Source: Siphonodentalium dalli (Eukaryota; Mollusca; Scaphopoda; Gadilida; Siphonodentaliidae). From it: 64,000 bases of DNA. The stretch covers positions 112,394,004 through 112,458,003 of the forward strand of contig CP136064.1 of assembly GCA_032622095.1 (NCBI GenBank), in the 5' to 3' direction. The position numbers were made by a program, and so were the translations under genes. Positions within the stretch are counted from its first letter, which is position 1. Each line of letters opens with the position of its first letter. Below are positions 13,819 through 61,026 of this stretch, piece after piece. The notes beneath the pieces were generated by a model. The model made no database searches, was not told where the DNA came from, and worked only from the letters and a program-made list of their open reading frames with translations.

Positions 13819-13878
13819 GCCACAAGAAAAACGACCATGACCATCCAGGAAAGGGAAAGGGACATGGATGCCACCCAG
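13819..13878 (+). CDS. His/Gly/Lys linker exon 1 of modular secreted protein
   Basis: A 60-base exon is bounded by a good acceptor (CTTTGATTTTAG) and donor (CAG|GTGAGT). Read in phase 1 at both ends it encodes HKKNDHDHPGKGKGHGCHP with flanking Gly. The peptide is rich in His, Lys and Gly and has one Cys. It may be a flexible, charged, possibly metal-binding linker; that role is an inference. A homologous exon lies at 20769-20840, and the first exon at 49259 has a related Gly-Lys-Gly-Lys-Gly-Ser-His-His segment. The TSP1 exon expected downstream is missing from this duplicate. No transcript evidence is available here, so whether the exon is used is unknown. Confidence 0.65.
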
Positions 13879-14065
13879 GTGAGTTCAGATAAATGTATGT
13901 CAGCTATATATAACAGAGTGGAATCTGACTCTGTCTGTCTGTCTGTTCGCGATTTCTCTCCCATACCCCTGGACTGATTTCAGCCAAATTTGGTGTGGTG
14001 TGTCTGATGTTTTAACCGCGTTAGTTTAAAAAAAAAAGTTATTTGAAACAAATTTTACCGAGCTG

Positions 14066-14180
14066 TGTTGGGATATAAGATTTTATAAAACGAGTTTGAT
14101 AAATTTGATTCACAACGAGTCGTAGGCGAATTTTGAATCAAATTTATCAAGCTCGTTTCATAAAATCTTATATCCCAACA
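14066..14180. repeat. Hairpin in duplicated unit, copy 1
   Basis: Arms 'tgttgggatataagatttt' and 'aaaatcttatatcccaaca' form a hairpin of about 115 bp with a further inner match (TTGATAAATTTGATTCA). The same hairpin is in copy 2 at 21026-21140, so it was present before the duplication. Confidence 0.8.
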
Positions 14181-14850
14181 TTACGAGAAGAAGATCTTGT
14201 ATGTCACATGAAAAAACTAGAGCTTTGTTGCCTTTTGAACAAATGAAAATCCTTAACAGAATCTTTAAAATGCACATGTTTACATTGTTGGCTGAGACGA
14301 TTCACAACCATATACGACAGTATTGCGCGCTCGAGCTGCCGATGGAAAATAAAGTCCCCCAATTTGCCTCTTGTTTTTGTGTCTATTTTCGTTAGCGCAA
14401 CGAAGTTGGACAATAATTTAACTTTAACGAACAAAGTAATCGTTTTGCATTGTCTGGTGTTGTTGTCGTGTGCGGCTTTACGAAATATTATTAATCCGCC
14501 TCATTCAATGTAAAGTAATTTTGGTGACGGGAAGCACGCGCCTATTATTCAATAGTGATAGATAAGGAAATATGTGATGGCTTTTTTAATAATATAATAG
14601 GGGTTTAATATGATATAGTTATATATAATTGCACATGATATATAAGTGTGCCGAATTATGAATGAGTCAGACCCAGAACAATGGTGAATTACAACCACGG
14701 GATACAGTAGACGATGTATAGACCCGAATATGCTTTCTAATGTGGTTGAAGATCCACTGTTCGATTTGACACCAACCTTCAACATGTCCTAAAGTGGTTA
14801 TCAACATATCAGGCAAAATATAACAATACTTTGCAATCACCATCATTTCC

Positions 14851-15956
14851 TTTGTACGGACATGAAGTGTGTAAGTGATTGGACGATGTCACGTCTGTGC
14901 CTGGACAATTTCCTTCCAAAAACAGTGAAACAAGCAAACCATTCGACGCCATGTCGATATTGAACACCGGAACCGAATCGAGATATAACAAATGGAAGTA
15001 TGTGTGCCTTCAACCCGACACTGGGGTTCACATACTCTCATTGAAATGAACCGGTTTGTGACATCTCAAAAAAGTTCCCCATGATGTTTTCGCTGTTTTT
15101 TTTAAAGAAGGGGTTATATGCAGACTACGCTGTTCACCGCGCTTGGGTCTTTAAGTGATTTTTCCGCATAAATAGTGTTCAGTCAAACATGCAAGCACTC
15201 ATTGGCTCAATTCACCTGTCCAACGTTAGAATATTGAATATACATTTAAAATTCTTGAGATATGGTGTAATATATATGTCAGGAGTCTTACGTGCACTAA
15301 TTTTGATAACTTTATAATGTTTGTGAGAATCTGGGATTCATGCATTATAACGAACCAAAGTAGGACGCTTTGGGTCGTATATAGACTATATCTGATATTC
15401 TGACGTCACCAATTATTATCTAATACGACACTGTTGTTTTGAATATTTGCGACCACTTCGTTTAGTTACCACTCTATACATTAATATTTTAGTGAATATT
15501 TGCCTGTATTTTACACATTAATGACAAGTTTAGCTATACCGATTCGTCTAATACAATTATGTCAACATAACCCTGGAATGGAGACCACCATACTGTTATT
15601 GTGTTGTTGTTGTTTTATTATATATCGAAGCATTAACGAAGTTATCGTCGAAAATATTTTGTTGAGATGGTAATTAACGTTTATCTTGTTGGAAGATGCA
15701 GGCTACACCCGTTTGAAAAATACAAACGGTAACGCTTACAGTGGACCATTCCTGTGGACTTATAGCATGCCCCATATTATATCGCCCTTAAATTACCTCA
15801 CTCTCTCTATATTTTCAGAGTATGATATGCAAACATGTATCTATGCAGGTGCTACTATTGTTTCTTATAAATGAGGAACAAAATAACATGTTTAATCACA
15901 CAAACACAAGTAAATAATAGCGATGCTTGTTAGGACATGTTTTTCATATTTTATGT
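14851..15956. other. No recognised gene
   Basis: A minus-strand frame at 14809-14991 encodes a short, partly Cys-containing peptide (GNCPGTDVTSSNHLHTSCPY), but I see no family and no splice context. The stretch is otherwise AT-rich without obvious repeats. Confidence 0.4.
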
Positions 15957-16124
15957 TCATTTGCATGTGTCTAGTCTCTCTCCTGTTTCTTGAAAGACCG
16001 AACAGTGAGGATAAGTTTTGCCACATGCGCAGACAAAATCAAGACCACGGTTATAGTTGACTTTAATGTGGTCTATCAGACTTTGATTGTGCCTATATTC
16101 AGAACCGCACACATCACATATGTG
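15957..16124 (-). pseudogene. C2H2 zinc-finger relic, 3' part
   Basis: The minus strand encodes HICDVCGSEYRHNQSLIDHI, then FVCACGKTYPHCSVFQETG and a stop at 15957-15959. The first finger keeps Cys-x2-Cys and the first His but lacks the second His. The next is C-x-C with poor His ligands. It continues upstream at 17222-17310 on the other side of a hAT-type insertion. Removing the insertion and one TSD copy rejoins the frame as RHVRRH-ICDVCG. Because ligands are missing, it was probably already decaying, or is a non-canonical finger. Parent gene unknown. Confidence 0.65.
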
Positions 16125-17229
16125 CATGGATGTGGCTAGGGGGTCTCCGTTGGGGGGGGGGTCCACCTTGGGAAATTCCAATTGCACCCCCCCCCTTGAA
16201 TCAGAAACCAAACACAACTTTTGCATAATTCCATTTTCACCCCCCCCCCCCCTTGAATCAGAATCACAGACCAAACACAAGTTTTGCATAATTCCATTTG
16301 CACCCCCCTTGAATCAGAATCACAGACCAAACACAAGTTTTGCATATTTCCATTTGCACCCCCTTGCACATCAGTCCTCAGGCCTAATATTCTATGAATT
16401 CATAAACTATGTTGTTCTATATGCCCGGTATAAGAAAATTCAGATACTTTAACCTGAAAATTGCATAAATCCTAACATCTAGTAGCCTACTCCAGACAAA
16501 TGCACACGGCTACGGGTAAGAGACCAGGACATTGTGTCCGTCCATGTTTGTTCAGCCCGGTTTGAGAAAATTTGGAAAACTATACAAGAAAATCGCAAAT
16601 CCTAGCATCTAGACTGGCCTCAACTGAAGCTGCCCTAGTGTTGGAAATTTCAAACCTCATACTCCCTCTGAGGTTGGAAAATTCTCCAACTGATGACCAT
16701 TTCAGTCCACAAGTTTGACCGAATGTACTAAACTATTGTTTTGTTAAACTAATTAGCCGTTTTGTATTGGTCACGGGGGAGGGACAGTGACACACCGGGC
16801 CGACCATGGTTCGGCCCGGTGTTCGAAAATTTTGAAATCTGAACAAGAAAATCGCAAAATCCTAGCATCTAGACTAGCCTCAAGTCTTCTTAGAGTTGGA
16901 AATTTCAAACCTGACACCCCCCCCCCCACTTAGGTTGGAAAATTTCCAAATGATGACAATTCCAATGACAATGTTGACCAAATGTATGACAATATTGTTT
17001 TCTTAAATTTAGTAGCAGTTTTGACTAGCCACGGGGGAGGACCAGGACACAAGCTTTCCAAGTGTTGGAAATTTCCAACCTGTCACCACCCCTAAGGTTG
17101 GAAACTTTCCAACTGATGACCATTCCAACTAATGTTTTGGCAGGTATGAAATTTCCAACTTTTGAAAATTTTGACTAAAGTTGGGGGGGTGAGACACACC
17201 CCCTCTCTAGCCACATCCCTGCATATGTG
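16117..17229. mobile_element. hAT-type non-autonomous element with 8-bp TSD
   Basis: The element spans 16125-17221 (1,097 bp) with 15-bp terminal repeats CATGGATGTGGCTAG and CTAGCCACATCCCTG (CAGGGATGTGGCTAG inverted). Perfect 8-bp target duplications, CATATGTG, lie at 16117-16124 and 17222-17229. These are hAT hallmarks. The interior is made of diverged tandem modules containing TTGGAAATTTCCAA-like motifs, C runs, and 'cctagcatctagact' blocks (near 16610 and 16860). There is no transposase. Related copies: 29620-30455 (one end missing) and inside arm A near 9335-9945. Confidence 0.88.
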
Positions 17230-17310
17230 CCTTCGCACGTGTCGCATCTGGGACGTCCGTTGTGCAAAATGTGCCTTGCATAGGTTTAAACTGTACGGCC
17301 GGGTATTTAG
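17222..17310 (-). pseudogene. C2H2 zinc-finger relic, 5' part
   Basis: The minus strand reads RPYSLNLCKAHFAQRTSQMR then HVRRHI, a C2H2 finger with the first Cys of the pair replaced by Leu (usually RPYxCxLC) and the His pair H-x4-H intact. It joins the fingers at 15957-16116. No start or upstream exon was found. Confidence 0.65.
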
Positions 17311-17685
17311 ATAAACATTCATATGGTCGACTAATTGGAATTTACGAATAAATGTTTTCTCACATGCGGTTCTGTGAGTGCGTTTTTTTCTTTTGGTGCT
17401 TTTATTGTTACCATCTTGTTATCATAAAACAACTCATCGTTTTAACACCTCGCTGCCACTTCCGTGAGTTGACTCCCACGTTACCACAGTTAGAAATAGG
17501 CCAATCTTCTAACAGATTACAGCCTAGAAAGTTACAAATGTTTCATCACATGTTCGCTTGCATCGCTTGTTCATGCATGCGGAAATTATCCTTAAACTAT
17601 TAAAATTTGAATGCACACCTCAATCATCGAATGTGTACGCAGTACTGGAGTCTGTACATTCATTGTACATGTTCACAAATCCCAC

Positions 17686-17826
17686 AGGAAGCCTCGCATA
17701 CATAAGACAATGCACTGGATTAGTAATACAAAGTGAAGGTAAATATTTTTATGTCAATGTGTTATCTTATATATGCAAGGCTCCATATGGGGAACTCGCA
17801 TATATAAGAGAATGCATTTGCACAAC
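17686..17826. repeat. Remnants of CTCGCATATATAAGAGAATGCATT family
   Basis: Two diverged copies of a motif, 'ctcgcatacataagacaatgca' and 'ctcgcatatataagagaatg', occur about 110 bp apart. The same motif forms the perfect hairpin at 32768-32837, so this is probably a decayed relative. Confidence 0.55.
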
Positions 17827-17997
17827 GTCTTCGCAAAATTTCAGGATACTCCAGTCATGAATATAGGGTATACGGTTATATTTACCTCTTGGGGTACATT
17901 TCAGGTAATGAAATATATTTCATTCTAGTTTATGGCTGCGTTGAACATAAATATTTACCTCCTGCAAACGTCAATGTTCACAATTGTTACCAAAATC

Positions 17998-18260
17998 TTA
18001 ATAGTAGTGTTCAATATTGCCCATTTGAACGCTAATTTAGCGTCTAATATCTGTTGCATGTGTTCTGGACACAATATGCGTTCAAATGTTAAACACTAGT
18101 GTTAACATTATTGAACACTGGTGCGTTGATCACTAGTGTCATAAGTTGAACACTGGCGTTAAGATCTGAACACCAGTGTTGCAGACAATTTGAACGCGAG
18201 TGTTAACATATTTGAACACAAGTGTTTAAGATTGAATACACGGACGCGTTCAATAGCTGT
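17998..18260. repeat. Degenerate array of palindromic AACACnnGTGTT motif
   Basis: Variants of TTGAACACTAGTGTTAA recur roughly every 20-35 bases (for example 18092-18106, 18112-18122, 18147-18158, 18166-18182, 18195-18204, 18214-18226). The core is self-complementary. There is no coding potential. Confidence 0.65.
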
Positions 18261-18722
18261 TGCAATTTTAGCGTTCAAAACGAACATTTGTTTTTGGAGT
18301 GTATTCACGAATGGTTGTTTTTGTTCACAGTCATATACGGAGGCACACTGGTATATAGGATACAGATGCATGCTGGTATATAATTTGATCATGTTAAATA
18401 TGGTATGCACCAGCATGCACCCGCATCCTATACCAGTGCGTGTCCGTATATGCTATGAGCACAAACAACTAGCCACGAATCCGTACAAGTGTATAATCGG
18501 ATCGATCGCCCCCACCCGCATGATAATACACTAAGTTTATTTTAAGCACTGACGTCTTAATATCACTATCACGACACGGTTTGATTGATCAACGCCGAAA
18601 TTCCGGGACGTTAATTGGCTTACGTATTTCTTACGTATAGCCACGAGAAAGAAAACCATCTAAATATATATATCTTTGAGAATTTACTCTTGTTTTGTGG
18701 GTTGTTGAAACCCACTTAATTA

Positions 18723-19134
18723 TCGAATGACAACATTACATTATACACAACATATCCCATATTATATACCATTTGGAAGAGGAACCAAAAACATATATAT
18801 TCCACCAGAATACGGAACAGTTGTGGCCTTGGAGTGTCCACCAAGTAATATAGATTCTCAGATTCATTCCAAGACTTAAAATCCCCCTTGTCAACCCAGA
18901 ATGCATCAGAATTCAAACAATGAGATAGAGTTATTCCCCTTCCATTGAGAATAAGAGACATTATAGTTCAGTTTGGATCAAAAATAATCACAGAACACAC
19001 ATCAGTACCTCGACGAAAACAATGTTCCCAGTTTATTCGCCCGGATCAGTTGATAATACAATGTTTTGTAGCTTCCTCTTTCAAATGGTATATATTATGG
19101 CATATGTTGTATATATTGTGATCTGGGGGTTCGA
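18723..19134. repeat. Diverged inverted repeat (about 65 bp arms)
   Basis: 18723-18786 pairs with 19070-19134 (for example 'catttggaagaggaa' with 'ttcctctttcaaatg'). It is likely an old MITE. The interior minus-strand frame (18961-18716) encodes a peptide I do not recognise. Confidence 0.55.
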
Positions 19135-19299
19135 AAATTAAGTGAGCCTTCAAACGTAGTAAACATAATATGGAATTAATGTTTCTCTTGTAAATATTAA
19201 TGAAGCACGAGTTTTCTGTTTTGCCGAGCCTCATGCAATTTCTTATACTCGTTTCATAAATATAATATGAGAGAAACACTTATTTCAGGTCATATATTA

Positions 19300-19814
19300 T
19301 TATTTCAGACTAGAAATTCATATAATGCAAACACATTTATTAAAAACTTGACATGATCAGTTTGATAAGTATGTGTCGTAATGTTGTACTGTTATAGATT
19401 ATTTATAAACGAAAAGCATATATTTCTTATATTATTCCGATAAAGTAACCCAAACTGGAATCATCTAGAAAAAATATGATGACTATTCATTATTTATTTA
19501 TTAAGTGAGATTTATTTAGGGTTTTTAACCTGAATTATAACTGATCCGATTAAATCGTTTCACTGTAATATGTATGGGTTTGTGAATAAAGGTTTTGTGG
19601 TGGAGCTTTTGATATTGTGTTGAAATTTTAATCCTTCTGAAAGTGCATTGACGCGCGTCAAGTATATATAGAACCTTTGTTATCTCGCTAGAGAGGCCAT
19701 ATACGCAATATTGATACATTATTGTACCTATAATCTATCGACATTCACTTTGTAAACTGTACCCGAAACGGGTGTAGACTGGATCATCGTGTCGAGACGG
19801 TCAGATATAAGTTG
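19300..19814. other. No recognised gene
   Basis: AT-rich sequence between an old inverted repeat and the start of unit copy 2. Nothing identifiable. Confidence 0.45.
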
Positions 19815-20335
19815 TACCCTACCTATTTCTCGGAGCACGTAAAACATATAATACGTGCAGCACGAGAGTTGATTCGGTCGTTTTGTTGTTCAATTCATTG
19901 AACAGTTTGTCGTCGATGATAACTTATGGCTGTACAGTCAACCATATACATGTATATGCAAAATAACTATGTTTGAAGGAATTTTTGTAAAAGGCGTATT
20001 TTCTGTACTATATGGTGGATTTCTGGAGATATTTTACACCAATCTTTGACATATATCTATCTTGTATATGCAAGGTGTCAGATAAGGGTGCATATAGGGT
20101 ACCACACTACCACTGATAACTCTTAAGTCTTCTATCGTGAAAAGTGCGACTGCATCCTAGAATAATTAATTCTTTCGCGTATCGGACGATAAGATGTAAT
20201 CGATTTGGCAGGATCCAAACAGGTGTAAGCGTTTCTAGCAGGACCGGTTCCCATGGGATGAATACGCATCTGTGAAGTTACTTTTATAAGATTAAAAAAG
20301 GCACAGATATACCCTAGCTTATATGCTTGTGGTTT

Positions 20336-20693
20336 AGCTGTATAGTTCGTTAATTATATACGCTAGCGTATGGTCATATTACTTTGTTCCCCGATACAAA
20401 ATTTCGGTGGACTGTCGAAATGAGCGGTGTCCGTCCGTCCGTTTGACCAGACGTATGTGTCTCTGTCAGTACGAGAGTCTGGTCGTTAGTGTGTCCGCCC
20501 GTTCGGATCGTGTGTTGTCCGGATTGAAAATACTCGAAATAATATTATGGAACTTGGTATATGATTTTAGATATGATACAATCACTGTCAAGTTCGAATT
20601 TGGTCACACTCTGATGATTTGTGACGGAGATATGCCCCTTTTCAGACGACCACGGTTCAATCGCAAGTGGAAAGTTTTCTGTCGTGGTTAGCA
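20336..20693. repeat. Intronic open-frame repeat, copy 2
   Basis: Counterpart of 13373-13743. The plus-strand frame (20407-20691, 94 codons) is retained with several substitutions, and the end reads FNRKWKVFCRG. See the entry for copy 1 for interpretation. Confidence 0.4.
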
Positions 20694-20768
20694 ACCAGTA
20701 GTTGGACGGCGCATTGTCGTGGTATCATAGTGAGTAACTAGTTAATATCAAGCACTCTTTGATTTTAG

Positions 20769-20840
20769 GCCATGGCAAAGGCCATCAGAGACACGACCAT
20801 AACCATCCAGGAAAGGGAAAGGGACATAAATGCGACCCAG
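20769..20840 (+). CDS. His/Gly/Lys linker exon 2 of modular secreted protein
   Basis: A 72-base exon has the same acceptor (GATTTTAG) and donor (CAG|GTGAGT) as the exon at 13819. Read in phase 1 it encodes HGKGHQRHDHNHPGKGKGHK followed by CDP and the split residue. It differs from copy 1 by an added HGKGHQR-type segment at the start. Seven of its 24 residues are His. It is spliceable in frame to the TSP1 exon at 22036 (also phase 1). The short HxHxH clusters could bind divalent metal; this is an inference from composition only. Confidence 0.7.
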
Positions 20841-21025
20841 GTGAGTTCAGATAAATGTATGTCAGCTATATATAACAAAGTAGAATCTGACTCTGTCTGT
20901 CTGTCTGTTCGCGATTTCTCTCCCAGACCCCTGGACTGATTTCAGCCAAATTTGGTGTGGTGTGTCTGATGTTATAACCGCGTTAGTTTAAAAAAAAGTT
21001 ATCTGAAACACATTTTACCGAGCTA

Positions 21026-21140
21026 TGTTGGGATATAAGATTTTATAAAACGAGTTTGATAAATTTGATTCACAACGAGTCGTAGGCGAGTTTCGAATCA
21101 AATTTATCAAGCTCGTTTCACAAAATCTTATATCCCAACA
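21026..21140. repeat. Hairpin in duplicated unit, copy 2
   Basis: Same hairpin as at 14066-14180, with both arms conserved. Confidence 0.8.
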
Positions 21141-21639
21141 TTACGAGAAGAAAATCTTGTATGTCACATGAAAAAACTAGAGCTTTGTTGCCTTTTGAAC
21201 AAATGAAAATCCTTAACAGAAGCTTTAAAATGCACACGTTTACATTGTTGGCTGAGACGCTTCACAACCATATACGACAGTATTGCACGCTCGAGCTGCC
21301 GATGGAAATAAAGTCCCCCAATTTGCATCATATTTTTGTGTTTATTTTCGTTAGTGCAAAGAAGTTGGACAATAATTTAACTTTAACGAACAAAGCAATG
21401 ATTTTTGCATTGTCTGGTGTTGTTGTCATGTGCGGCTTTACGAAATATTATTAATCCGCCTATTCAATGTAAAGTAATTTTGGTGGGGCGATGCCAAGTT
21501 GGTGGGAAGCACGCGCCTATGATTTAATAGTGAGAGATAAGGAAATATGTGATGGCTTTTTTAATAATATAATAGGGGTTTAATGTGATATAGTTATATA
21601 TAATTGCACATGATTATATTAGTGACGTATTATAGGTAG

Positions 21640-21905
21640 TGTATTTCGGAAGATCAGTGGTTAGAGTGTTCGACTTGTAGTCGATGTGTTGACAGCCATA
21701 TGAGTTCGAACCTCGCCGGCATACTGCTGAATTTCATAACACTTCATGACCAGGTGTCGAGTTAAGCGGGCTGTGACTAGAGAGCTGTTCAAATACCGGA
21801 TATTACTGTTGTAACCCTTGAGCAAGGTGGCCCGTACTGTGATGGCTTGGTGTCGACTCATATCAAATAACGTCTAACCCCGAAGCCGATGAAATAGTAA
21901 ATTTT
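21640..21905 (+). mobile_element. tRNA-derived SINE candidate, copy in unit 2
   Basis: The head has an A-box-like GATCAGTGGTTAGAGTG (21653-21669), an anticodon-arm-like TTCGACTTGTAGTCGAT (anticodon position TGT, tRNA-Thr-like), and a B-box-like GAGTTCGAACCTCGCC (21702-21717). A longer body with 'cccttgagcaaggtggccc' follows, a motif type common in SINE bodies. The acceptor stem is not formed, so it is not a functional tRNA. It lies in the intron before the TSP1 exon and recurs at 28175-28450 through unit duplication. Confidence 0.65.
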
Positions 21906-22035
21906 GGGTGTTAATCGGACAGGGTACCTTTAAACTCGAGATGAAGAATTCGGTATTTGTTTTCTCAGTAATCAGTCTCTGTTGTCCCCCCCCCGTGTCT
22001 TCAAACATGTGCGTAATATAATATCAATTCTTCAG

Positions 22036-22203
22036 TTAATGGCAATTGGATGACTTGGACTTACGGTCAATGTTCAACGACATGCGGAGATGGCCAACAG
22101 ATTAATACCCGAACTTGCGACAACCCAGCACCAGCGAATGGCGGGGCCGACTGCGACGGTAATCCAGAAGAGACAATCATATGTAACTTGGTGGAATGCC
22201 CCG
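22036..22203 (+). CDS. Thrombospondin type-1 (TSP1) repeat exon
   Basis: A 168-base exon is bounded by acceptor TTCTTCAG and donor CG|GTAAGT. It is phase 1 at both ends and encodes one complete TSP1 domain of 56 residues. Visible landmarks are W5 and W8, CSTTCG at 13-18 (matches the O-fucosylation pattern C-S/T-x-x-C-G family), Arg26 before C28, and six Cys at 13, 17, 28, 40, 50 and 55. One Arg of the usual R-x-R is Asn24. TSP1 domains occur in secreted or extracellular proteins and bind other matrix or adhesion molecules. The exon sits downstream of the linker exon at 20769 and can join it in frame. The unit's duplicate at 12936-14850 lacks it. Confidence 0.92.
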
Positions 22204-24744
22204 GTAAGTGTGCCGAATTATGAATGAGTCAGACCCTGAACAATGGTGAATTAGAACCACGGGTTAAAGTAGAGGATGCTTTATAATGTGGTTGAATATC
22301 CACTCTTCGATTTGATACCAACCTTAAAAATGTACTAAAGTGATTATCAACATATCAGGCAAAATATAACAATACTTTGCAACAGGGCCACTAAACTCGG
22401 TCACGTGATGGGTAACGAAACACTCATAACAAATCGCTAATTCTCGCTTCCGATGCTTATTTCTCGAAAACAACAAATATTCTTGTTGTGACATATTAGC
22501 GAAAGAAGAACTACATATTTCTTGTGTCCATTGAACAAAACCGCTTTTAGAAATATAGTCCCGTATAAAGCTGATGCCTCGCACAAATTTAAATCTCTTA
22601 CTTTTCACCCATTTTCGTGCTGGTGGATTTTAATGATAACGCCAACACATTTATCCCAATTTCACCAGTAAGAAGCATCAGAGCTTTATTTAGAGCATTT
22701 GTCCATCCGGTATCATAGTCAAAATTTGAGAAACATATTTTTGCATGGTTTTCAAAATATACCTTGAAATTTTGAGCACCTATCCACTCTCTGTGTCTTC
22801 AAATGCAATATTGGTAACGCTCGAACAACAGACGAGGCATGATAACGCCCGCACAGTAATATCAAATAGCTATATTAATATGGAACGAAGCCGAGAACGC
22901 CTACGAGCAATGCAGAATTATACCATCGGACAATATTGCAGGGATGTAGTCCTACATATATTGTACAGGATATATTTACGATCTACTATTTATTTACAAT
23001 AGAAACAAGGAACGAATTCCCCCGTTACAAACACAAATAATTTGTGGAATGTGTCATTATCAGAGCTGTGGGAAACCAGTTATATTATACTGCAATCCAA
23101 ACCTAATTGTGTCCAGAAAAAAACGTGTTATGGAGCACAACCGGGACCGATAAATATTTCGGGGCACTGCATATTGTACTTTTTTCGGCAAGGGGAGATG
23201 GTCAAAGTTTTAATTTCCAATTACACCTGACAGATATAAAAATTTAGAATTTTAAATACTCAATTTGTACCACACTAGTTGTAATTATCCACCTAATCCC
23301 TCACGTTTTCCAATATATGGAAAAGTCCACGTCACAAACGAAAATATTCTAATATTCTAATCTCGATCTAAAACGACATAATTATATTATACTATACAGA
23401 ATGGCGGAAAGTCAAACTATCGGTGCAATCTCAACACATGTTCGGTCTGAAGTATCTGGCTACTGTGCCCCTTATATTATATCACCACGACCCTACGGTA
23501 CATTCGACTCCTCACCACATATCCGAGTTACAATTGTTGCACATTCGTTCACATACAAATTCCACACCATTGTATTCAATAAAAAAATTATCATAGGTCG
23601 TTTGTTGAATTTGGTATCTGAACATTTCCCACCAATGATAAATTCAACTAATTTAATTTCCTCAATTAGTCTAAAATGCATCCAAGGAACAAAAAGTCGA
23701 ACAAAAAGTCTAACATATCGCTCAACAAAACTAAAAGATGTAAACCAATATTCATAAAGATCAGGACTGTCATAGCAGAAAGAGATTAAGTGAGTGTATA
23801 ATTTCACCGCACCATATACGGACAAGTCAGACATACACAGACGTCCTAAAAAAAGAGAGACAATGATGACGAATATATTGTCTACACCGTCAAAGATATC
23901 TGCGGAAGCCTTAAAAAAAAGCCAACTAAGTCAAAGCGGGGGGAAAAGTTGTTCCATGTTCCTGAACCTATATGTGCCAGATCCCGGAATTTAAATTCAT
24001 CAGCAGCTGAACGACAGGGGAGAGGAGCCTCGTGCACTAAGTTTGGTAACTTGTGCTCCGATCGCCTGTGCACCACAACATAATTTATAAATTATGTGTT
24101 ACGTAAAATATCCCATGTCTTTGTGGGTCACAATAAATATATTCAAACAAAGATCCCGGAAGAAACTTCAGAATTGATCATCATTGATGGGGCTGATTTC
24201 AGATGTATATAAAGCGCTACAAGGTCATATAGACACGGCATTGTCCTGTCACATTTCTTCCATGTTATAGATAACATAGCTTTTGCTTTACTGTAGCTTG
24301 AGGTTATCAATCGGTATCGGTGTATAAACAGTACCGGGATGCGGTACTCGAATGACATTTAGTGGCAACAAGCAAGACGGTACATACTGAGAACGTGGAT
24401 ATATCGTGACCCCCCCCCCCGCATACATGCACACTGGCAAATATCCCATCTATGCAGTGATCGATATACGATATATATGTATTGATCACTCGAACTATAT
24501 ATTTGGCATTCGGGGCATTCGAAAAAATATTAGAGCTTTGATATAATTCTGGACCAAAGTAATTCATATTTCGAAACACTGTAACCATGCAGGTCTGGGA
24601 CATCCTGAATTGAATAAGTATATAAGTTATAGTTATCGATAAGAGTTGAAGGTGGATATCGTGATGGTGCCACGTCGTGTCATCGAAAGGAAGTCAATTA
24701 GCACTCACATATGTGTATATATTGCAGTTGCATTGCCTGCTTAA

Positions 24745-25150: not shown

Positions 25151-25152
25151 GC

Positions 25153-25205
<53 letters not shown>
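25153..25205. repeat. (AT)n microsatellite
   Basis: Continuous AT repeat. The Ile/Tyr-rich open frame on the minus strand here is an artefact. Confidence 0.97.
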
Positions 25206-25208
<3 letters not shown>

Positions 25209-27842: not shown

Positions 27843-28022
27843 AGCAATCACCATCATTTTCTTTGTACGCATATCGCGAAAATAAATAAACCATCCATCA
27901 TTTTTACTTTGAAAACGAATACAAATTATCATACATTATAATAGATAACGGCCTTTAATTTATTGGTTACTTTTGGAAAACGAAAGAGACGATCGTTGGA
28001 ATATTTTCCAGTTCGACAAAAA
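27843..28022 (+). repeat. Tail of unit copy 2 (180-bp direct repeat)
   Basis: Nearly the same sequence recurs at 28629-28805 (starting ATTTTCTTTGTACG and ending near 'ccagttcgacaaaaa'), the tail of unit copy 3. This shows that copies 2 and 3 are in tandem. Confidence 0.85.
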
Positions 28023-28174
28023 TAAAAAACGTTGCCAAGTTGGCGGGAAGTACGCGCCCATTCTTCAATGGTGAGAGATAAGGAAGTATGTGATGGTTTT
28101 AAAAAAATAATATAATAGGAGTTTAATGTGATATATAATTGCACATGATTATATTAGTGACGTATTGTAGGTCA

Positions 28175-28450
28175 TGTATTTCGGAAGATCAGTGCTTAGA
28201 GTGTTCGACTTGTAGTCGATGTGTTGACAGGAATATCAGTTTGAAGCTCGCCGGCATACTGCTTAATTTCATAACAGTTCATGACATGTGTCGAGTTAAG
28301 CGGGCTGTGACTGGAGAGCTGTTCAAATACCGGAGATTACTGTTGTAACCCTTGAGCAAGGTGGCCCGTACTGTGATGGCTTGGTGTCGACTCATATCAA
28401 ATAACGTCTAACCCCGAAGCCGAAGAAATAGTAAATTTGGGGTATTAATC
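28175..28450 (+). mobile_element. tRNA-derived SINE candidate, copy in unit 3
   Basis: Second copy of the SINE seen at 21640-21905, with the same A-box-like and anticodon-arm-like segments. The B box has changed (GTTTGAAGCTCGCC), so the internal promoter is probably weaker. Confidence 0.6.
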
Positions 28451-28565
28451 GGACAGGGTACCTTTAAACTCGAGTTGAATAATTCGATATCTGTTTTCTC
28501 AGTAAACAGTCTCTACTGTCCCCCGTGTCTTCAAACATGTGCGTAATATAATATCAATTCTTTAG

Positions 28566-28629
28566 TTAATGGCAATTGGACGACTTGGACTTACGGTCAA
28601 TGTTCAACGAGATGCGGAGAAGGCCAACA
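28566..28629 (+). pseudogene. Truncated TSP1 exon
   Basis: After acceptor TTTAG the sequence encodes VNGNWTTWTYGQCSTRCGEG, the first third of a TSP1 repeat that is close to the exon at 22036. It then runs directly into downstream intron sequence at about 28629. The deletion removed four Cys codons and the donor site, so the exon cannot make a folded TSP1 domain or splice in the usual way. One change (Thr16 to Arg) alters the CSTTCG motif. Confidence 0.85.
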
Positions 28630-29052
28630 ATTTTCTTTGTACGGACATCGCGAAAATAGAAACAAAAAACATCCATCATTTTTACTTTGAAAACGAATAC
28701 AAATTATCATACATTATAATAGATAACGGGCTTTAATTTATTGGTTACTTTTGGAAAACGAAAGAGACGATCGTTGGAATATTTTCCAGTTCGACAAAAA
28801 TTAAAACGTGTTAACTCTGCAGCTTATTGCACCATCATAACCTCACATTAATGGGAGCATTGGCGAGATCTAATAATGTTCTGTGTTATAAAACGTACTG
28901 ATTGTGGTTTGATGATGTTAAAGCAGACAAGGTAGTTTTAAACTCGAGATGAAGGAATCGACATTTGTTTTCTCAGTATTCAGTCTCGATCTACTGTCCC
29001 ACCGTATGTTCAGATACCCTTATTGCTAATTTGTGTAATATCCATTCTTCAG

Positions 29053-29220
29053 TTAATGGAGGTTGGTCGATTTGGGTTGATGGTGTGTGTTCAACAACAT
29101 GCGGAGATGGGCAAACGAATCGTACACGGGCTTGTACCAATCCAGAGCCGGCGTACGGTGGGGCCAACTGTTCTGGAGTTGCAAGAGAGACAATCGCCTG
29201 TAACCCGGGTGACTGCCCAG
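29053..29220 (+). CDS. Thrombospondin type-1 (TSP1) repeat exon
   Basis: A 168-base exon is bounded by acceptor CATTCTTCAG and donor CAG|GTAAGA, phase 1 at both ends. It encodes a complete 56-residue TSP1 domain: W5 and W8, CSTTCG (13-18), R24-x-R26, and six Cys at 13, 17, 28, 40, 50 and 55. It has the same length and Cys positions as the exon at 22036 but is clearly diverged, and the upstream intron still matches (TTTAAACTCGAGATGAAG..., near 28938). It is therefore an older duplicate. It can splice in frame after 20840 or 22203. No plausible next exon of this gene was found before 49259. Confidence 0.92.
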
Positions 29221-38585: not shown

Positions 38586-39613
38586 CACTGAGAAAAATCC
38601 TTAGTCACAATGACTAACTTGTTCTTAGTCATCAGATAAGTTAGTCATTATGACTAAGCTAAAATTGATACGACTAACTTAGTTCTTAGTCAAATAAATG
38701 TTAGTCATAATGACTTGTTAAATTGATACGACTAACTTAGTTCTTAGTCAAATAAATAATTAATTTACGCGATTTTGGTTCGAGGAAGAATCGTACAGTT
38801 CTACGAAATATCGACACTATGAAGGCCAATATGCATATGCACACTATTCTGCAAGTATATACTCAGTTGGCACCTTGTATATATATTCTGAGAAAATAAT
38901 CGGGTCAATGTGACTAAATTATGGTTAGTCACAAGCATTTGGAGTCACGTTGACTAACCCACACCTTTCAGCGAGTAACTATAACTAACTTTGACCTTAG
39001 TCATAGTGACGAAATTAAACGAAGAATAACTCTAGTTTCAACACTGCCTTAAATGATGCTGATTATTCATTGGTAGATGCTGATAAATGTACAATTTCCA
39101 CTGCATCGCAATTATATCAGACATATAATTGAACGAGTGCGATGGAATGATGTAATGGCTTATATATACAAAGTTCACTCCCACACCAAAGGCTACATTG
39201 TTTTTGAAAAATGGTTCTTATATCATAGACACCACAAAAATCTCTGGAAAATAAACTAGTTAAACAGACCTATACTACAAACTAATGTCATACCTCTCAA
39301 AAGACCAGTATTGGAATCTGTGTTTTAGAGAATTGCTTGAAAGATAATAATATATCATCTGGTTGACTACTGAAATTATTTGCACAAAATATCCAACAAT
39401 TTAAAGTTTTACATTCCCAGTGCATGACTAAGAAAAGTTAGTCATTACGGCTCAATAAAGCTAGCATATCAGTCATTGTGGACTAAGCTACGAATTAGTC
39501 ATCGTGACTAAGAATGTAAATTAGTCGGAATGACTAAGAAAGTTAGTTGAGTTACGGACAAAAATCTGACAAATCAATCTTAGTCATAATGACTAAGGTT
39601 TGTTTTCTCAGTG
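38586..39613. mobile_element. TA-flanked CACTGAGAAAA element with TTAGTCA array
   Basis: 1,028 bp with TIRs CACTGAGAAAAATCCTTAGT and its complement, flanked by TA (38584-38585 and 39614-39615). The ends are filled with many palindromic TTAGTCATnATGACTAA motifs, with more near 38925-39010 and 39425-39600. An internal copy of CTGAGAAAA (38888) suggests a nested or rearranged element. No transposase. The TA duplication suggests a Tc1/mariner-like mover. Confidence 0.82.
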
Positions 39614-43980: not shown

Positions 43981-43984
43981 CTTC

Positions 43985-49199: not shown

Positions 49200-49208
49200 G
49201 TATATAAG
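49200..49208 (+). promoter_or_regulatory. TATA box of secreted-protein gene
   Basis: GTATATAAG (TATATAAG core at 49201-49208) lies 51-58 bases upstream of the ATG at 49259. This predicts a transcription start near 49230-49235 and a 5' leader of about 25-30 bases. The position is right for a compact TATA promoter. There is no experimental support. Confidence 0.6.
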
Positions 49209-49258: not shown

Positions 49259-49400
49259 ATGAATCAATTGTGTCTGGTTGCGATCCTCGTGGTTATTATC
49301 CCGGCGGTGATTCCGGACCCGAGCCCAAAGGCACAAGGATGTAAAGGGCATTTGGTAGTAGATGGAAACAAGGGGAAAGGAAGTCACCACTTCAAGTGTG
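49259..49400 (+). CDS. First exon: signal peptide plus Gly/Lys/His segment
   Basis: The ATG at 49259 has a G at -3 and a TATA box 51-58 bases upstream. The exon encodes 47 codons plus one base, then donor G|GTAAGT. Residues 4-18 (LCLVAILVVIIPAVI) are a hydrophobic signal-peptide core after a short MNQ start, with a likely cleavage near residues 19-26. The mature part reads GCKGHLVVDGNKGKGSHHFK and a Cys. Its Gly-Lys-Gly-Lys-Gly / His-His content resembles the linker exons at 13819 and 20769, and the exon ends in phase 1 like all of them. I infer the first exon of a second gene in the family, directed to the secretory pathway. The next certain exon is the EGF exon at 60916. Confidence 0.82.
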
Positions 49401-53355: not shown

Positions 53356-53857
53356 TTAAAGGTACGGTTGGCCTTGGCGGTGGGTATCCTGTGAAAATAT
53401 TTCCACCCGTCAAAAACCGCCACAAACAGAAAGAACAACAAAATGTAGACAGACTTTGTCCGTATACAAATAACAAATATCGCATAACCAGTATGTTATT
53501 GTCATATTTTTGACCATTGTTATGTAAACAAAAGCATAAAAAGTTACTTTTCTGGTGTTTGTTTATATTATGATGGTAAACATAAAGAGCGTTCTTTGTG
53601 GGTGAATTCCTGATATGGAACGAATAAAGAGCGTTTATGCCATTTGTGTGTGATTAGCCAGCAGCATTGTGTTGTCTTCTGTAACACAATCAGGCTCTTG
53701 CTTAGGTAAAATATAGTAAATCTTTATGATAACATGCTGTTTACGCGATGGTCATGGTATATATGAACGAAACTGTATGCGTTTTAATGTTTTTCTGTTT
53801 ACGGTGATTGGAACAAATATGAATATTTTCGACAACTAAGGCCTCACGTGCCTTTAA
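53356..53857 (+). mobile_element. piggyBac-type MITE, copy 3
   Basis: 502 bp, bounded by TTAA (53356-53359 and 53854-53857). Nearly the same as copy 2. TIR TTAAAGGTACGGTTGGCC on the left and GGCCTCACGTGCCTTTAA on the right. Confidence 0.9.
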
Positions 53858-56800
53858 GACATAATAAATAATTTATATTTAAAACGGACAAGATGGAAAT
53901 ATATTTGTTCGTGAGAAGCCTTAAGTGGAAATAAGGCTATCATGCTTTAATGATATGTGACAATCTGGAACTTAAATAAATTGAATTTCACATACAATGG
54001 ACACTAAAGAATGCCTGATATCGTCACGGGAAGTGCAAATACAAACTTGTCGTTTGAGATATTAAAGGGGCAAATTTAAGTGTTTTCCCAAATTGTGTAC
54101 GCACCCATTAATATGTTGACAAAATTTATTTATAATTGAAAATCCGATGCAGGAAGTTGTTCAGACTTGTGACAATTTAATGTGACTGAAGCAACAGCTG
54201 CGAACAATGTAAAAAAGCAACATTTATCCAGAATCTCTATTGTAAACGCGACTGAAATCTGAGTGATCATTTTTTTTGGAAAACAAACATGCATATATCT
54301 ACACTGCTGGTTTCATAAAGGTGAAATTTTATTCAAAAGTGAGCCCGTTATTCTTTGTATTCTCAACTTATGCTGCATATATGCACGGAATATTCCATGC
54401 TGCTAACATGCTTGCTTAATGTGCCAACAATCGCGAAAAGAATGGGCAGGGTATATCTGTTTAACTTAGTCATTCTGTCCGTGCGTCCGTATAGCATTAT
54501 GTCCGTGTTTAATATGTTTCCACGTGTATGTCCGTCCACGAAAAATAACTCATCCAGGAGAAGGCAATCGGGTTTCAATTGAATTCCCTATCAAACAAGC
54601 TTTATCAATATGATAATCTGCTGTTGTTCACAATGTCTGCTCTATAAGTATTACTATTTATTCATCGGGGACTATTTTTTTTCAAATACACGCTGTCCTT
54701 CCGCATTGATAACGTTTGGCAAATGATGTTCCGAATGATACGGTTTTATCTGTGTGACTCACTATTTGATCATGCTAATTTAGCCGATACAATTAAGGTA
54801 AGACTAAATCCCGCGAGTATTTTAAAGAGAGTTTGCACTCTGCCCAAGCGTAACCGCACGCATGGGTCACCTATAAATTTAAATTTTATTTTAACCCTTT
54901 CTATACTAAATAGATTCTCCCAGCCAGATACACAAGTCTACATTGGAATTGTGTATTATTTAATTGGAGGTGTGTTCGTGATAAATTAGCAGACAATAGT
55001 CAGGCGAAAAGATGATAGAAGTGCTGAAGGATTAATATTCATTGGTGGGAATGTGGTTATATGTTACATAAATACGATGTTGACTGCAAGTTAATACGTT
55101 GAATACAGACATGTCTGGCATGTCGCATATTTTAGTCATATGTATAATGCACAGGTACTGAATGGATAGAGCTCAAAATGAAACTGAAATATGTGATACA
55201 TCGTATGTATCGGTGTTTGAATGCCCAATCCGTCCAAATAGTCAGAACATACCGTGTACTGCTAAATTTTATTGACTGGCAAATAGCTATACCGAAATTC
55301 AATGTTGGCACGGTTTTCGCCCGTGTTTAGCTTTGATATTATTTGTGTTCATATTTTGTATATTGCGATTTCTTATAACAATCCCATTGAAAGCATATCG
55401 AAATTTACTTCTCCAAAATATTAGATCCCAGAACAATCACATCGTATCATAAAATGTACATACATATTGTTATAATCATACTCGAAGTTAAGACTAGACT
55501 AGACGATGGGATTGTTCTGCGTTTTAACATTTTGATGAAGTATAATGAGTTAGGTAGTACTAGTATAGGGTAAACCAGTCCCACACGGACTGTATATCGG
55601 ACATAATTGTCGCAAATGCACCAACACCGAGGTCGGCGTTCGACTCTTTATTGGCATATACCGTACTATAAAACATTCATATTCGATTGGTAACTCTTTC
55701 ATCTCCAAAACACCATCTTACATAGTATAGGGACAGATAATGTCAGTCATATTCAATATGCAAAGCTTTCGAGAATTTATCATTTTTTATTGTATGATGT
55801 GCTACAAAAAATATTGTCAACCTTCAAAGTGTAAATATAATTATGCTGCATCGGATATCCAACAGAGTTCGATTCATGTTTTTCAATCATGTGTTCGTAG
55901 TAACTTGTAAAGAAGTATATGCACATCAGTCGTGCGCAAGAGAGTATACATTGGTCTGTTCTAATTAGTTAAAATTTATGGTTCAAAGTTTTAATTGATC
56001 GATTAAAGTTAGTTAAAATAATTTGTTCAAAGTTTTATTGCTTGCATTTCTGTAATCAACAACCTGCCCACTCAGGGGTGTAATTAACACATTTGCAGGA
56101 AGGTATGCCGTTCGTTTTGCATCTGGCATTTTCGGGGACCAACCACCCCCAAACCTGCAAAAGAACATATTTTTGTACTCCAAATTTTTCGACACCCCAC
56201 ATCTCACGAATTTGGTCAAAAACCACATAAAACCATACTAATAGCAACCACCAAGGGTGCTTATACCTAAGGCAGGTGAATGACGTCATATATATTTTTC
56301 TATATCCATCAGTGATTTTTTAGATCGCGGGTATGGATTTTGGAGAAATTATCACGTGACTTCCGGTTAGCAACAATGTGGAGATTGCAAAAAAACGCGG
56401 AATTGGGAATGAAGCATTGCGATGAAAATGAAAGTAACTAATTCACAACTTACGAAGAATTCACATCTGATTTAGGCCTATTAATTTCAATTAGACCAAT
56501 TTCTTTGGTTAGTTTAATGAAAACGAAAAATAAAGACGACATGACACGGTTTCTGACGTCATTTTGGATTTGTGGGCCAGAATCCAGACAAGATTGCACA
56601 ACCCACGACACGTCTTGTCAGGTTGACATGTCATATCTCCGTCGTGATCACTGCGTGATGTTACATAAATTATTCTTAGCGCTATGTCGCCAATAAAAGG
56701 CAAATTTGAGGCACAGCATGTGTGGTTGCTCAACTACGTGCCACGTACGATTCATATTATCACTCATATGACTGGCAAAATATCACCGTTAGTTCAAATG

Positions 56801-59800
56801 ACAGTTTAACCTTTTCAGAAGCTGGTTTATTGGAAACTAAATGGTTAATGCAGGCAAATGTGAAGGTTTGTTTAAAATAATGGCTGATAGGCATTAACAT
56901 TTTGTCTACCACACACATGCATTGGAGTGTGCAGGTCAGTGCATGCTGAGATTATGCTAGATTAACATGGGTGGTCAAATTCCATGCTATTAGATGGAAA
57001 TTTTAATGCATCAATGTAGTGGACAAATATAGTGAACATATATGGTAACACATCAGAAGCTGATAGGTGCACATAAAACACAAGTATAAGGTACATGCTT
57101 ACAATTTTACAAAAACAAATTATACATATCGCAGCATATCTCCTACATATCCAATGAGATATAATTTTTCCCAGCAAGCTAAATTACATGAACCGAACAT
57201 AGTGTTTCCTACTTGGTTGTAATGGATTTTAAGCTGCTAACATCTCAGCATCGTGAACTCAATCATGACTTTCGAGTCACTGACAGTTGAACTCGGAGAC
57301 GGTCGAGAAGTCAACAATTCAACTGGAGTTAACATATTTTGAAAATAAATACATAGAGAGGATACTTACCAGGCTGCAATTGGGAAATATTATTTTGTAA
57401 ATTGCTGATATCTCAAACCTGGGTCGTTGTGCGGGATACACAATTTCATAATTTCTAACTATTTCCTGACTGGTCTGTCAGCCAGCCCATCATCTGGCAT
57501 TATTCCATACCACTTTTGTTAGTCTGCTGGAACAACTTCTGTTATACTAAATGGCACACAGTCACTATGCCAAACTTGGAAACTGTAGGAGTTACACATA
57601 GGTGGGGGCGTGGTGTAAATGTCCCGGTGGCATGTTCAGGGCGATGTCCGGGGGGGGGGGGGGTTGTCCGCAAACCATAATGGCTCGCTCTTTGTTGGTC
57701 TATCAAAAGAAATTGTCTTCCTTCAATAGTTTACACCATTTGAAACCCCTCTCACAGAGCAATATATGAGCGGTTGTTACGTTGCTGTATATATACATGT
57801 ATTGTTCATCATCTCTGTATGTTGTTCTTTTATTTTGTGTACATATGTATGTATTGCTAATCATTGGTTTGGCCAAATAGGGACGCACGCCTATAAATAT
57901 CCAGACCGTTTACAGTTTAGTCAGCGGTCATGACTGCAACTGCCCATATTTACGGTTAAGTCAGTATATATATATATATATTGGCGTATCTGGTCCCCAA
58001 TTTGGTGAAAAAATACTAGTATTTCGAAATTCGTATCCTCCAGCAGCCTCCTGTGGGAAATTTCAGAGTTGAAACTTGTAGAATTATGTTTAAATTTTAA
58101 CTTTCCGAATAGAATATAGTCCACATTTGATTCTTTTCAGTTCGTAATACTAATTTCGACCATTCTAAAACAAGAATCGGGCATCCCCTTTAAGATAAAA
58201 TTATCAGAAACTCAGACGTATCTACATGTAAAAGTAAAACATCTGAATTGAATACTTTGTTGGTAACATGTAAGGCGCACAATTGACCAGTCACTTGTAA
58301 ACACAGTTCATGTCTTAACGGATGCATGCGTCTACATCACGACAATATCATAGTAAAAGTCACATATCTCATAAACTTTGATGATATGGTGTATCAAACT
58401 GTGTAGCGTATATTAAAACACTATCAATATCAGTGAGTCATAGATAGTTTGGTAGGAACATTCTAACCAATAGCGGACTAAAATTGACCTAATAACGGGC
58501 GATAACTTGACGAACGACGACAATGTTCTCAAATCCACGACGAAGATTGATAAACACCATGCATCGGTCCGTGTAACTGTAATATTTGTACTTGTACTTG
58601 TAAGTTGGAATTAGGATAATCCGTCAGTTCATTGTTGTTGTTGACATCGAAGCTCTTGTGAATTACTCTGGTACGTCTATCTTCTTGTGTAAATGTATAT
58701 GCTTTGAAACAATCAGAACAATGTCAACTGGATTGAACAGGTCATGTTCACAAACTGATAACACAGTCAACAGGTCAACATTGTAATATCAACGACGTTG
58801 TTGTTGATATTATTGTCACTAGAACACGTATCTGTGTTTTGATACACTGTCAATTTCAACATCAACATACGAGTCGAATCAGTCAAGTCGTACATCCTAC
58901 ATCTCGTTGGCTAACATGTATACTCAACACGTTGATTGATAATTTGTTGAGCGGTTTGTTTTCGACGGATGTGTGGTTTGTATTCAGCGGTTGAGTAACG
59001 CGTGCAACAATGAAAAATCAGGATATCTGTTTGGGATTTAATCAACAAGTTGATTAAAATTAACTCAATTTAAAACACTGTTCATCTTTAATGGTAGTCA
59101 TTTCAAGATGTTTAATCTACGTTTCAACATGTTTGGATCTATAAATGTAACCTTGAGATAGGAGGAGGAAAGGACCGATTATCCAGACATATGAACCGTA
59201 TGAATCGAATCATATCACATAATAATTTAATACCTTCCAACAGACCATTATCGGATACTATATCGGGATTTTAATACATATATATATATATCAAACAACA
59301 GTTGTATAAGTAACAAGCAACCTTTGGTAGTTCCTCTATATGCAACGTTGTGTAAATTGTATCCAACAAAACAGTTATTCACATTTTACACAACGTAGGT
59401 ACATGTACATGTAGGTACTGTGGGCAAACAAAGGTTGATTGCCTGTTGTGTAACATTTTATCCAACTAGAATTATGGTGTAGCCGACTACTCGAATATGC
59501 CACCTCGAATACAACCCATATACCACAATTTATTCGCAAAATATCACACACCAGCCGGTTTTCGCAGATTTAGAACTTGTCCGGTTCAGATAAAAACCGA
59601 AGTCAGACTGTCTTAACATTTACTCCACCACTGTATAAGTCAACTTTTCCCAATTTTTTTTTTTTAAAGCGATCACGCGATGCAAACAACCATTCGTTAA
59701 TGATAAATGTAACTGGGTTTGCAAACTTTGCTTGGACGCAAGTCGCCGGATTTCATTGGACTGAATGAACATGTCTGACAACTCAGTCTGGATGCACATA

Positions 59801-60915
59801 TATTGCTCTGATTACAAACACTTAATAGAATAGGCAAATATCAACAGAGTCAGAATTAGTCTTAGTGTATGAAGTCACTGCCGTATATAATTTGGTCACC
59901 GATAATATTGTTGAATTTTGACGGCATGAATTTTGAATCACGCACAATTTTAACCTAGACCATTTCCGAGCGCATAAAACAACGGTGAATTACCGCAGTA
60001 CTGACGAAACTGTATCAGACCGTCGGATTACTACGATCCGATACCGACGGTATTTTTTAATAGTGCAGTCGGAAGTTGGTCATTGCACGTGTATTAACAG
60101 ATTGACCTATTTGCCATGGTATATGTGTTTGGTTTGTTCAGAACGTTCCGTGTTAATCCCTTGTTCAGTGAAGATCAAGATATTTTGCCTGAATATATAC
60201 TCTGATTTTTCACGTTATATCTTTGTTTACCGTAAAGAGATGTATGTTGCAAACTATAAGTGCAATCTACGTGGCTATAACAAATGTTGTTCGTGAACTG
60301 AATAGGGCGTATATGCTTATATATAGTGTCCGCTACTGCTGATTCCATTGGCCCTTGAATATAATTCAGTGTTCGCGCTGGACCAGAAAACGATGGGCCA
60401 AAATGTGGGTCATTCTCAATATGTTTGGGTCATATGACAATTGTGTGGGCATTTATATTATGTGAATTCCGAACTAAGTAAAACCAATAACATAATATAA
60501 AATTAATTTATAGATATAGGATACTTATAGAGGTCGGTTAATTTGTTTTATCTTTGTCTATTTGTCTTCTCTACGTTATGGAAATTAACTAGAATGTGTG
60601 CTCGTGTTGTTTCCTGATGGACAAAGCCGTAGACGCACGCATCCAGATAATTACCACGCCTACAGCCCAGCCTGTCCTTTTGAAAATACGTTAATATTGA
60701 ACTTATTTCAAAACCCCAAATAAGCCCATATAGGCCTTATTTAGATCTGAATTACGCTTTATATCAACGTAAATTGGCACAAAAACAGTTGTATATGAGC
60801 TTATTCGTATGACAAATACGTCCGTATCGGGTGTATTTGATGCACCCACTTTTATAACCGAATGGATTAATTCATTTAGCAAAGATGAGGTTAATATGTT
60901 CATTTTATTTTGTAG
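53858..60915 (+). other. Long presumed intron, no exon seen
   Basis: About 7 kb without a convincing phase-1 exon, although small exons could be missed. It has a G run (57650-57663), short TA patches (57966-57982 and 59276-59290) and scattered CAACGTTG / TTGTTGTTGATATT-like palindromic phrases near 58690-58810. Frames at 54723-54989 and 59985-60296 have no family features. Confidence 0.4.
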
Positions 60916-61026
60916 TTGACAGGTGCGCTGATTTTCCATCTCCTTGCTCAGGAAATGGTGTGTGTGTAGACACTGATGACGGATACACTTGTACTTGTAC
61001 GACCACTTATTTTGGCGACATTTGCG
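60916..61026 (+). CDS. EGF-like domain exon
   Basis: A 111-base exon is bounded by acceptor TTATTTTGTAG and donor GCG|GTAAGT, phase 1 at both ends. It encodes one complete EGF repeat: Cys at residues 4, 11, 17, 26, 28 and 37, with CSGNGVC and the GYTCTC...YFGDIC pattern of a classic EGF module. The start (VDRC) lacks the full D-x-x-E calcium-binding signature, so it is probably a non-calcium EGF. Phase and orientation match the secreted-protein exon at 49259, 11.5 kb upstream, so I place it in that gene. It could belong to another gene if unseen exons intervene. Confidence 0.9.

What the first reader, a model, noticed from the sequence alone, without database searches (positions are those of the whole stretch)
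13819..61026. Family of modular secreted proteins built from His/Gly/Lys linker, TSP1 and EGF exons, all phase 1
Seen: seven splice-bounded plus-strand exons (one of them broken). Every intact one is phase-1 compatible: linkers 13819 and 20769, TSP1 22036 and 29053, signal-peptide exon 49259, EGF 60916. The short His-rich, Gly-Lys-Gly-Lys linkers are unusual partners for TSP1/EGF. Known: TSP1 and EGF modules shuffle as 1-1 exons in extracellular proteins. Inferred: two tandem genes for secreted matrix, adhesive (foot, byssus or shell) or immune-recognition proteins with possible metal-binding linkers. This is the best candidate for a little-described system here.
Basis: partly seen in the sequence, partly recalled or inferred. 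Interest (0 to 1): 0.75.

Follow-up and report, generated by a model that had tools for sequence, protein, structure and literature searches.

The report
Fast-evolving modular secreted protein genes
The window holds part of a small gene family for probably secreted proteins assembled from common building blocks, and comparison with relatives in the same genome suggests that a few of these blocks change faster than the DNA around them, as is known for venom genes.

Summary
In detail: two His/Gly/Lys linkers, two TSP1 exons, a signal-peptide exon and an EGF exon are splice-bounded and phase-1 compatible; the seventh, broken exon is a partial TSP1 copy. The locus continues outside the window: two more signal-peptide exons with TATA boxes 9 kb upstream, and two Cys-rich exons, X and Y, downstream.

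Two closely related C6 loci carry TSP1, EGF1, X and Y in the window's order and strand. TSP1 and EGF therefore probably belong to one gene type; signal exon 49259 is an alternative start or a second gene.

The most interesting result was not in the finding. Between C6 and a third paralogue, C4c, whose introns here are 95-97% identical for kilobases, the least similar 90-nt window (0.69; 0.90 elsewhere) starts 2 nt inside exon Y. The linker copies also differ more than their introns (p 8e-4). TSP1 and EGF exons show no clear excess.

Best reading: secreted modular recognition or effector proteins with a few diversifying segments on a TSP1/EGF scaffold. Gene conversion is a live rival. Transcripts, organism and function are untested.

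The parts
13819..13878 (+). linker exon 1, phase 1-1, HKKNDHDHPGKGKGHGCHP
   Evidence: HPGKGKGH codon pattern found only here and at linker 2
20769..20840 (+). linker exon 2, phase 1-1, HGKGHQRHDHNHPGKGKGHKCDP; 12-nt in-frame indel against linker 1
12972..14648 (+). copy 1 of a direct duplication carrying linker 1; no TSP1 exon follows it: from 14643 it continues as the intron 3' of TSP1 22036
   Evidence: 93% to 19912-21624, and 14643-14836 to 22205-22382 at 86%; junction read
19912..21624 (+). copy 2 of the duplication, with linker 2, followed by TSP1 22036
22036..22203 (+). TSP1 exon, phase 1-1
   Evidence: PF00090 46.5 bits; closest matches on C7, 68-75% identity, among the 150 candidates scored
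28030..28632 (+). copy of 21489-22103 (90.6%) that ends mid-exon: the broken TSP1 (28565-28636)
   Evidence: flank 27856-28032 is repeated at 28630-28809, 94%
29053..29220 (+). TSP1 exon, phase 1-1; 162/168 identical to the C6 paralogue
49201..49207 (+). TATA-box-like sequence, 58 nt before the ATG of signal exon B
   Evidence: the two upstream signal exons have theirs at 61 nt
49259..49400 (+). signal-peptide-like exon B (MNQLCLVAILVVIIPAVIPDPSPKAQGCKGHLVVDGNKGKGSHHFKC), phase-1 donor
   Evidence: similar to upstream signal exon A1 (0 of 5000 shuffles as high)
60916..61026 (+). EGF exon (EGF1), phase 1-1
   Evidence: PF00008 30 bits; 84% and 81% identical copies on C6; boundaries

Best explanation
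The window carries the middle of one member of a small family of modular proteins: signal peptide with a short low-complexity tail, then linkers or EGF0, TSP1, EGF1, and two small Cys-rich exons, X and Y. Shown: exon boundaries and phases, copy numbers and order in paralogues, and that exon Y and the linkers differ between copies more than the introns beside them. Inferred: that the exons are spliced and the protein secreted; that TSP1 and EGF are a scaffold; that the variable pieces (the first ~29 residues of Y, the linkers, and possibly the signal-exon tails) are surface segments that contact a changing partner such as a microbe, symbiont, gamete or prey, and are under diversifying selection. 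Exons are gained, lost and truncated by local duplication; phase 1-1 internal exons can be added or dropped without breaking the frame. In the window the three signal exons would be alternative starts of one locus, or starts of two overlapping genes.
For: Order on one strand: C6 52.43-52.47 Mb EGF0, TSP1, EGF1, Y with X; C6 51.54-51.58 Mb the same four (same calls), X; C4c, 112.29-112.31 Mb (-), signal exon C, EGF0, EGF1, X, Y. Y: 4 matches in 2.23 Gb at E<=1. Y exon, C6 vs C4c 132/164 identical, introns 378/405 and 213/218, Fisher p 5e-8; window locus vs C6 106/161 against 333/395 and 190/215, p 4e-8; the two comparisons share C6. The lowest of 4349 overlapping 90-nt windows starts at C6 39612, exon start 39610. 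Both lineages changed: 10 (C6) and 12 (C4c) of 87 sites. Linkers: exon 52/60 plus a 12-nt indel, flanks 215/219 and 208/215, p 8e-4. Upstream signal exons A1/A2: signal part 56/60, whole exon 96/127 with an 18-nt gap, flanks 80/86 and 87/94.
Against: No transcript was seen. dN/dS exceeds 1 for Y only in C6-C4c (1.39); it is 0.62 for window-C6 and 0.85 for window-C4c. Synonymous sites in Y are raised as well: C6-C4c dS 0.18 with introns differing by about 2-7%, window-C6 dS 0.65 with introns differing by 12-16%. Exon X is not significant (p 0.095). The A1/A2 tails are Ser-rich low complexity, which can diverge by slippage. The 'not accelerated' status of TSP1 and EGF rests partly on BLAST blocks (TSP1 region 96-97%, EGF region 90% and 79%), because their MAFFT flanks were short or badly aligned; for TSP1 the small difference is 6/168 against 0/60, p 0.34. 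The exon after Y was not found. No signal exon was found in the 70 kb read around the C6 gene. 'Recognition' rests on analogy.
Confidence: 0.5

Rival explanations
1. Gene conversion rather than selection: introns around Y were recently homogenised between paralogues while the exon kept older divergence.
For: Exon dS exceeds intron divergence in both comparisons. The EGF and X introns of C6 and C4c align poorly (36-65%, only short matches), so the 95-97% block around Y is a recent event.
Against: The dip begins 2 nt inside the exon and covers about its first 90 nt; the following 80 columns are 75/80 identical. In codons 1-29 of C6-C4c 23.2 changes are nonsynonymous and 3.8 synonymous.
Confidence: 0.3
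2. Two ordinary tandem genes: gene A (signal exons A, linkers, TSP1) ends between 29.3 and 49 kb, gene B (signal exon B, EGF, X, Y) starts at 49259.
For: Signal exon B has its own TATA-like box and phase-1 donor. The C6 locus has no collinear match to the window's 31.9-60.7 kb, which holds it. C4c has EGF and Y without a TSP1 found in the 50 kb read there.
Against: TSP1 and EGF1 lie in order on one strand in two C6 loci. In the one of these that was read through, no signal exon was found between them; the other was not read between. No end exon for gene A was identified, though none was searched for systematically.
Confidence: 0.35
3. A decaying locus: the window copy is a pseudogene made of leftover exons.
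For: Broken TSP1 at 28565, no TSP1 exon after linker 1; in C6 a TSP1 copy reads CAA where the others have the CAG acceptor.
Against: The six intact exons keep open frames and splice sites, and the linker indel is in frame.
Confidence: 0.15

Closest known systems
TSP1-repeat (TSR) proteins proposed for plastid or symbiont recognition in sea slugs and cnidarians (PMC7663992; abstract and list of sections seen)
   Same: TSP1-repeat proteins with many new domain arrangements
   Different: no sequence comparison made; here TSP1 is the conserved part and the fast parts are linkers and exon Y
Accelerated segment switch in exons (ASSET) of viperid three-finger toxins (PMC2474615, abstract and passages; PMC2711939, abstract)
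   Same: short exon segments differ strongly while introns stay similar and cysteines are kept
   Different: a modular TSP1/EGF protein; no three-finger match among the Pfam results; no evidence of venom; substitutions here are scattered over ~90 nt and a donor of the changed segment was not sought
Vertebrate thrombospondin-1 and properdin TSP1 repeats
   Same: tandem TSP1 modules, E 8e-40 and 7e-27 for the two joined TSP1 exons
   Different: only the TSP1 module was compared
EGF-containing marine adhesive proteins such as scallop Sbp9 (PMC13348336; search listing with start of abstract only)
   Same: EGF-like modules
   Different: no sequence comparison made; expression unknown

Membership tests
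TSP1 module | match over the PF00090 cut-off | tested here: met
   22036: 46.5 bits against 21.6; both TSP1 exons joined 69.9, two stretches
EGF module | match over the PF00008 cut-off | tested here: met
   60916: 30 bits against 21.5
Thrombospondin family proper | type 3 repeats and C-terminal domain (recalled) | tested here: inconclusive
   no such domain among the Pfam matches of the joined exons, but the 3' end of the gene was not found
D8C-like domain of uromodulin/GP2 type (resemblance of exon Y recalled from memory) | profile or PDB match | tested here: inconclusive
   no Pfam match, no PDB match of a 4-row profile at E<=10, no NCBIfam match (a prokaryote library); Y is one exon of an unfinished gene
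Secreted protein | signal peptide | tested here: inconclusive
   hydrophobic N-termini by a hydropathy scan; no trained predictor on hand
Genes whose mature exons outpace introns (venom or recognition type) | exon diverges faster than its introns | tested here: met
   exon Y and linkers; X not significant; TSP1 and EGF no clear excess; dN/dS over 1 in one of three Y pairs
Metal-binding His-rich linker | binds Zn, Cu or Ni | not testable with these tools
   needs a binding assay

The most novel reading that the evidence does not exclude
One locus with exchangeable N-termini: three signal exons, each with its own TATA-like box and with tails that differ from one another much more than their signal parts do, splice onto shared TSP1-EGF-X-Y exons. 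In the C6 relatives rows of seven and eight copies of another signal exon stand upstream of a single EGF0-TSP1-EGF1-X-Y set. The family would combine a choice of first exon with a hypervariable segment in exon Y.
Probability: 0.2. Interest if true: 0.7.

Novelty: new variant of a known kind. Interest (0 to 1): 0.5.

Why it matters
If the fast part of exon Y is under selection, it marks a surface in a TSP1/EGF protein that follows a changing partner, in a family small enough (four Y matches in 2.23 Gb) to test fully. The locus also shows phase-1 exon shuffling in progress: a linker-containing duplication, absence of one TSP1 exon from one copy, and a half exon copied into an intron.

Tried and rejected
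Rejected: the broken TSP1 as a working exon (the copy stops mid-exon). A C7 TSP1 cluster as the same gene type: its EGF (L010 4950-5063) is only 38% identical over 29 residues and Y has no C7 match. A Ser-rich stretch at C6 34540 (no splice context seen). A second Y near C4c 29.1 kb (none read). A short Cys-rich open frame about 270 nt after signal exon C, considered as that exon's own second exon: 11 of 16 copies examined contain it (10 of these 11 with one Cys fewer), but those copies share 95.6-100% identical DNA there, so it shows no coding constraint either way; 5 of 16 lack it. Organism: not identified; one paper search gave nothing usable. Papers: the listings shown by searches hold no description of this architecture that I recognised; several listings were cut (for example 12 of 117), and the library is open-access only.

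Errors of mine: EGF codon counts used a wrong frame and were redone. The exon pairing required phase 1-1 and so missed exon Y (phase 1-0). L045 was fetched at a mistyped place and not used. One search left out windows with more than 5 gap columns, and its block starts at C6 39295, after a ragged end of the match (0.35-0.82 at 39115-39294).

It gave 10 of 15 for the Cys-rich frame (11 of 16) and left out two dN/dS values below 1. Confidence in the best explanation was lowered from 0.55 to 0.5 and the conversion rival raised from 0.25 to 0.3 for that reason.
Full report
The observation. Every exon named in the finding is present with the stated phase and splice signals. The linkers are the rarest part: the HPGKGKGH codon pattern occurs only twice in the 2.23 Gb genome, both times here. 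TSP1 22036 and the EGF exon pass Pfam cut-offs; linker 2 matches nothing.

Local history. Linkers 1 and 2 lie in a 1.7-kb direct duplication (12972-14648 and 19912-21624, 93%). Copy 1 lacks the TSP1 exon that follows copy 2: its sequence passes from the intron before TSP1 22036 to the intron after it. A 600-bp copy of 21489-22103, with the 5' part of that TSP1 exon, sits at 28030-28632 and is the broken exon.

Outside the window. About nine kilobases before the window start lie two tandem signal exons, L007:436-580 and L007:1090-1216, each with a TATA-like box 61 nt before its ATG and a phase-1 donor. Searches with the second exon's peptide and with the first exon's DNA found only these two. 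The sensitivity of such short queries is limited: exon B as a query found only itself, although it resembles A1 (0 of 5000 shuffles as high). Downstream, in extended window coordinates, exon X lies at 65074-65154 (phase 1-1) and exon Y at 82473-82633 (phase 1-0). X and Y match no Pfam family; a profile of four Y copies matches no PDB chain at E<=10; NCBIfam, a prokaryote library, also has nothing. The exon after Y was not found.

Paralogues. TSP1 searches scored 150 of 1590 candidates and EGF1 150 of 810, so those counts are lower bounds. Y gave 4 matches; EGF0 gave 8, four of them 88-100% identical. C6 at 52.43-52.47 Mb carries EGF0, a TSP1 copy whose acceptor position reads CAA, TSP1, EGF1, X and Y on one strand. 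C6 at 51.54-51.58 Mb carries EGF0, TSP1, EGF1 and Y by search, with X read; its pieces are 92-99.6% identical to the first C6 locus, so it is a recent copy and not an independent witness. C4c at 112.29-112.31 Mb, minus strand, carries signal exon C, EGF0, EGF1, X and Y, and no TSP1 was found in the stretches read there. A further C4 place has signal exon C at 112212385, EGF0 at 112183455 and TSP1 at 112168347, minus strand, by search only. The window locus has TSP1, EGF1, X and Y in that order, with signal exon B between TSP1 and EGF1.

Exons faster than introns. Exon Y: C6 vs C4c 132/164 against introns 378/405 and 213/218; window locus vs C6 106/161 against 333/395 and 190/215 (Fisher 5e-8 and 4e-8; the comparisons share C6). 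Among 4349 overlapping 90-nt windows of the C6-C4c block the lowest identity is 0.689, starting at C6 39612, two bases after the exon start at 39610; the lowest away from the exon is 0.897. In 60-column windows the interior of the block stays at 0.87 or higher outside the exon, and later matching blocks at 0.92 or higher. Changes fall on both lineages: 10 and 12 of 87 sites in the first 90 nt, against 15 and 10 of 389 in the 5' intron and 2 and 2 of 215 in the 3' intron. Linkers: 52/60 with a 12-nt indel against 215/219 and 208/215, p 8e-4. Exon X is not significant (p 0.095). TSP1 (162/168) and EGF (96/111) show no clear excess over nearby BLAST blocks, and signal exon C is about as conserved as its 5' flank and more than its 3' flank (86/90, 109/114, 114/142, array unit vs C4c). 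Against a pure selection reading: synonymous sites in Y are raised too, and dN/dS is 1.39, 0.62 and 0.85 in the three distinct pairs.

Arrays. Signal exon C, first seen at C4c, has 25 matches: seven at C6 52.37-52.42 Mb and eight at C6 51.47-51.53 Mb, each row upstream of one downstream exon set; five at C6 51.92-51.96 Mb; four on C4; one on C7, whose first codon is not ATG. Spacing within rows is about 7.7-9.6 kb. One unit was read in full with the first 854 bp of the next, which are identical, and no other known module was found in these 10 kb. Whether these exons splice to EGF0 is unknown.

Verdict. Ordinary modules in an arrangement I did not find described, with a focal fast-changing exon as the point worth following. 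Selection and gene conversion are not separated by one genome, and function remains inference.

Noticed in passing
G000:C6 52368236-52418551, 51465874-51528167, 51923793-51955840: Rows of seven, eight and five copies of signal exon C at about 7.7-9.6 kb spacing; the first two rows stand upstream of single EGF0/TSP1/EGF1/Y sets.
   Followed up: partly
L037:473-558: Short Cys-rich open frame after signal exon C, in 11 of 16 copies examined; a second exon of a small secreted peptide, or chance within nearly identical repeat units.
   Followed up: partly
window 6044-8087 and 12372-12695, minus strand: Open frames that read like pieces of a non-LTR retrotransposon (recalled resemblance; no search made).
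   Followed up: no
window 8063-10223 and 10220-12384: Inverted repeat: 8063-9947 with 10220-12111 (92.6%) and 9947-10223 with 12108-12384 (96.8%).
   Followed up: no
G000:C7 25240602-25246547, minus strand: Four TSP1 exons 68-75% identical to 22036, followed by a different EGF exon.
   Followed up: partly
G000:C3 161.60-161.82 Mb: Dense run of TSP1 exons with the best PF00090 scores of the 150 scored.
   Followed up: no
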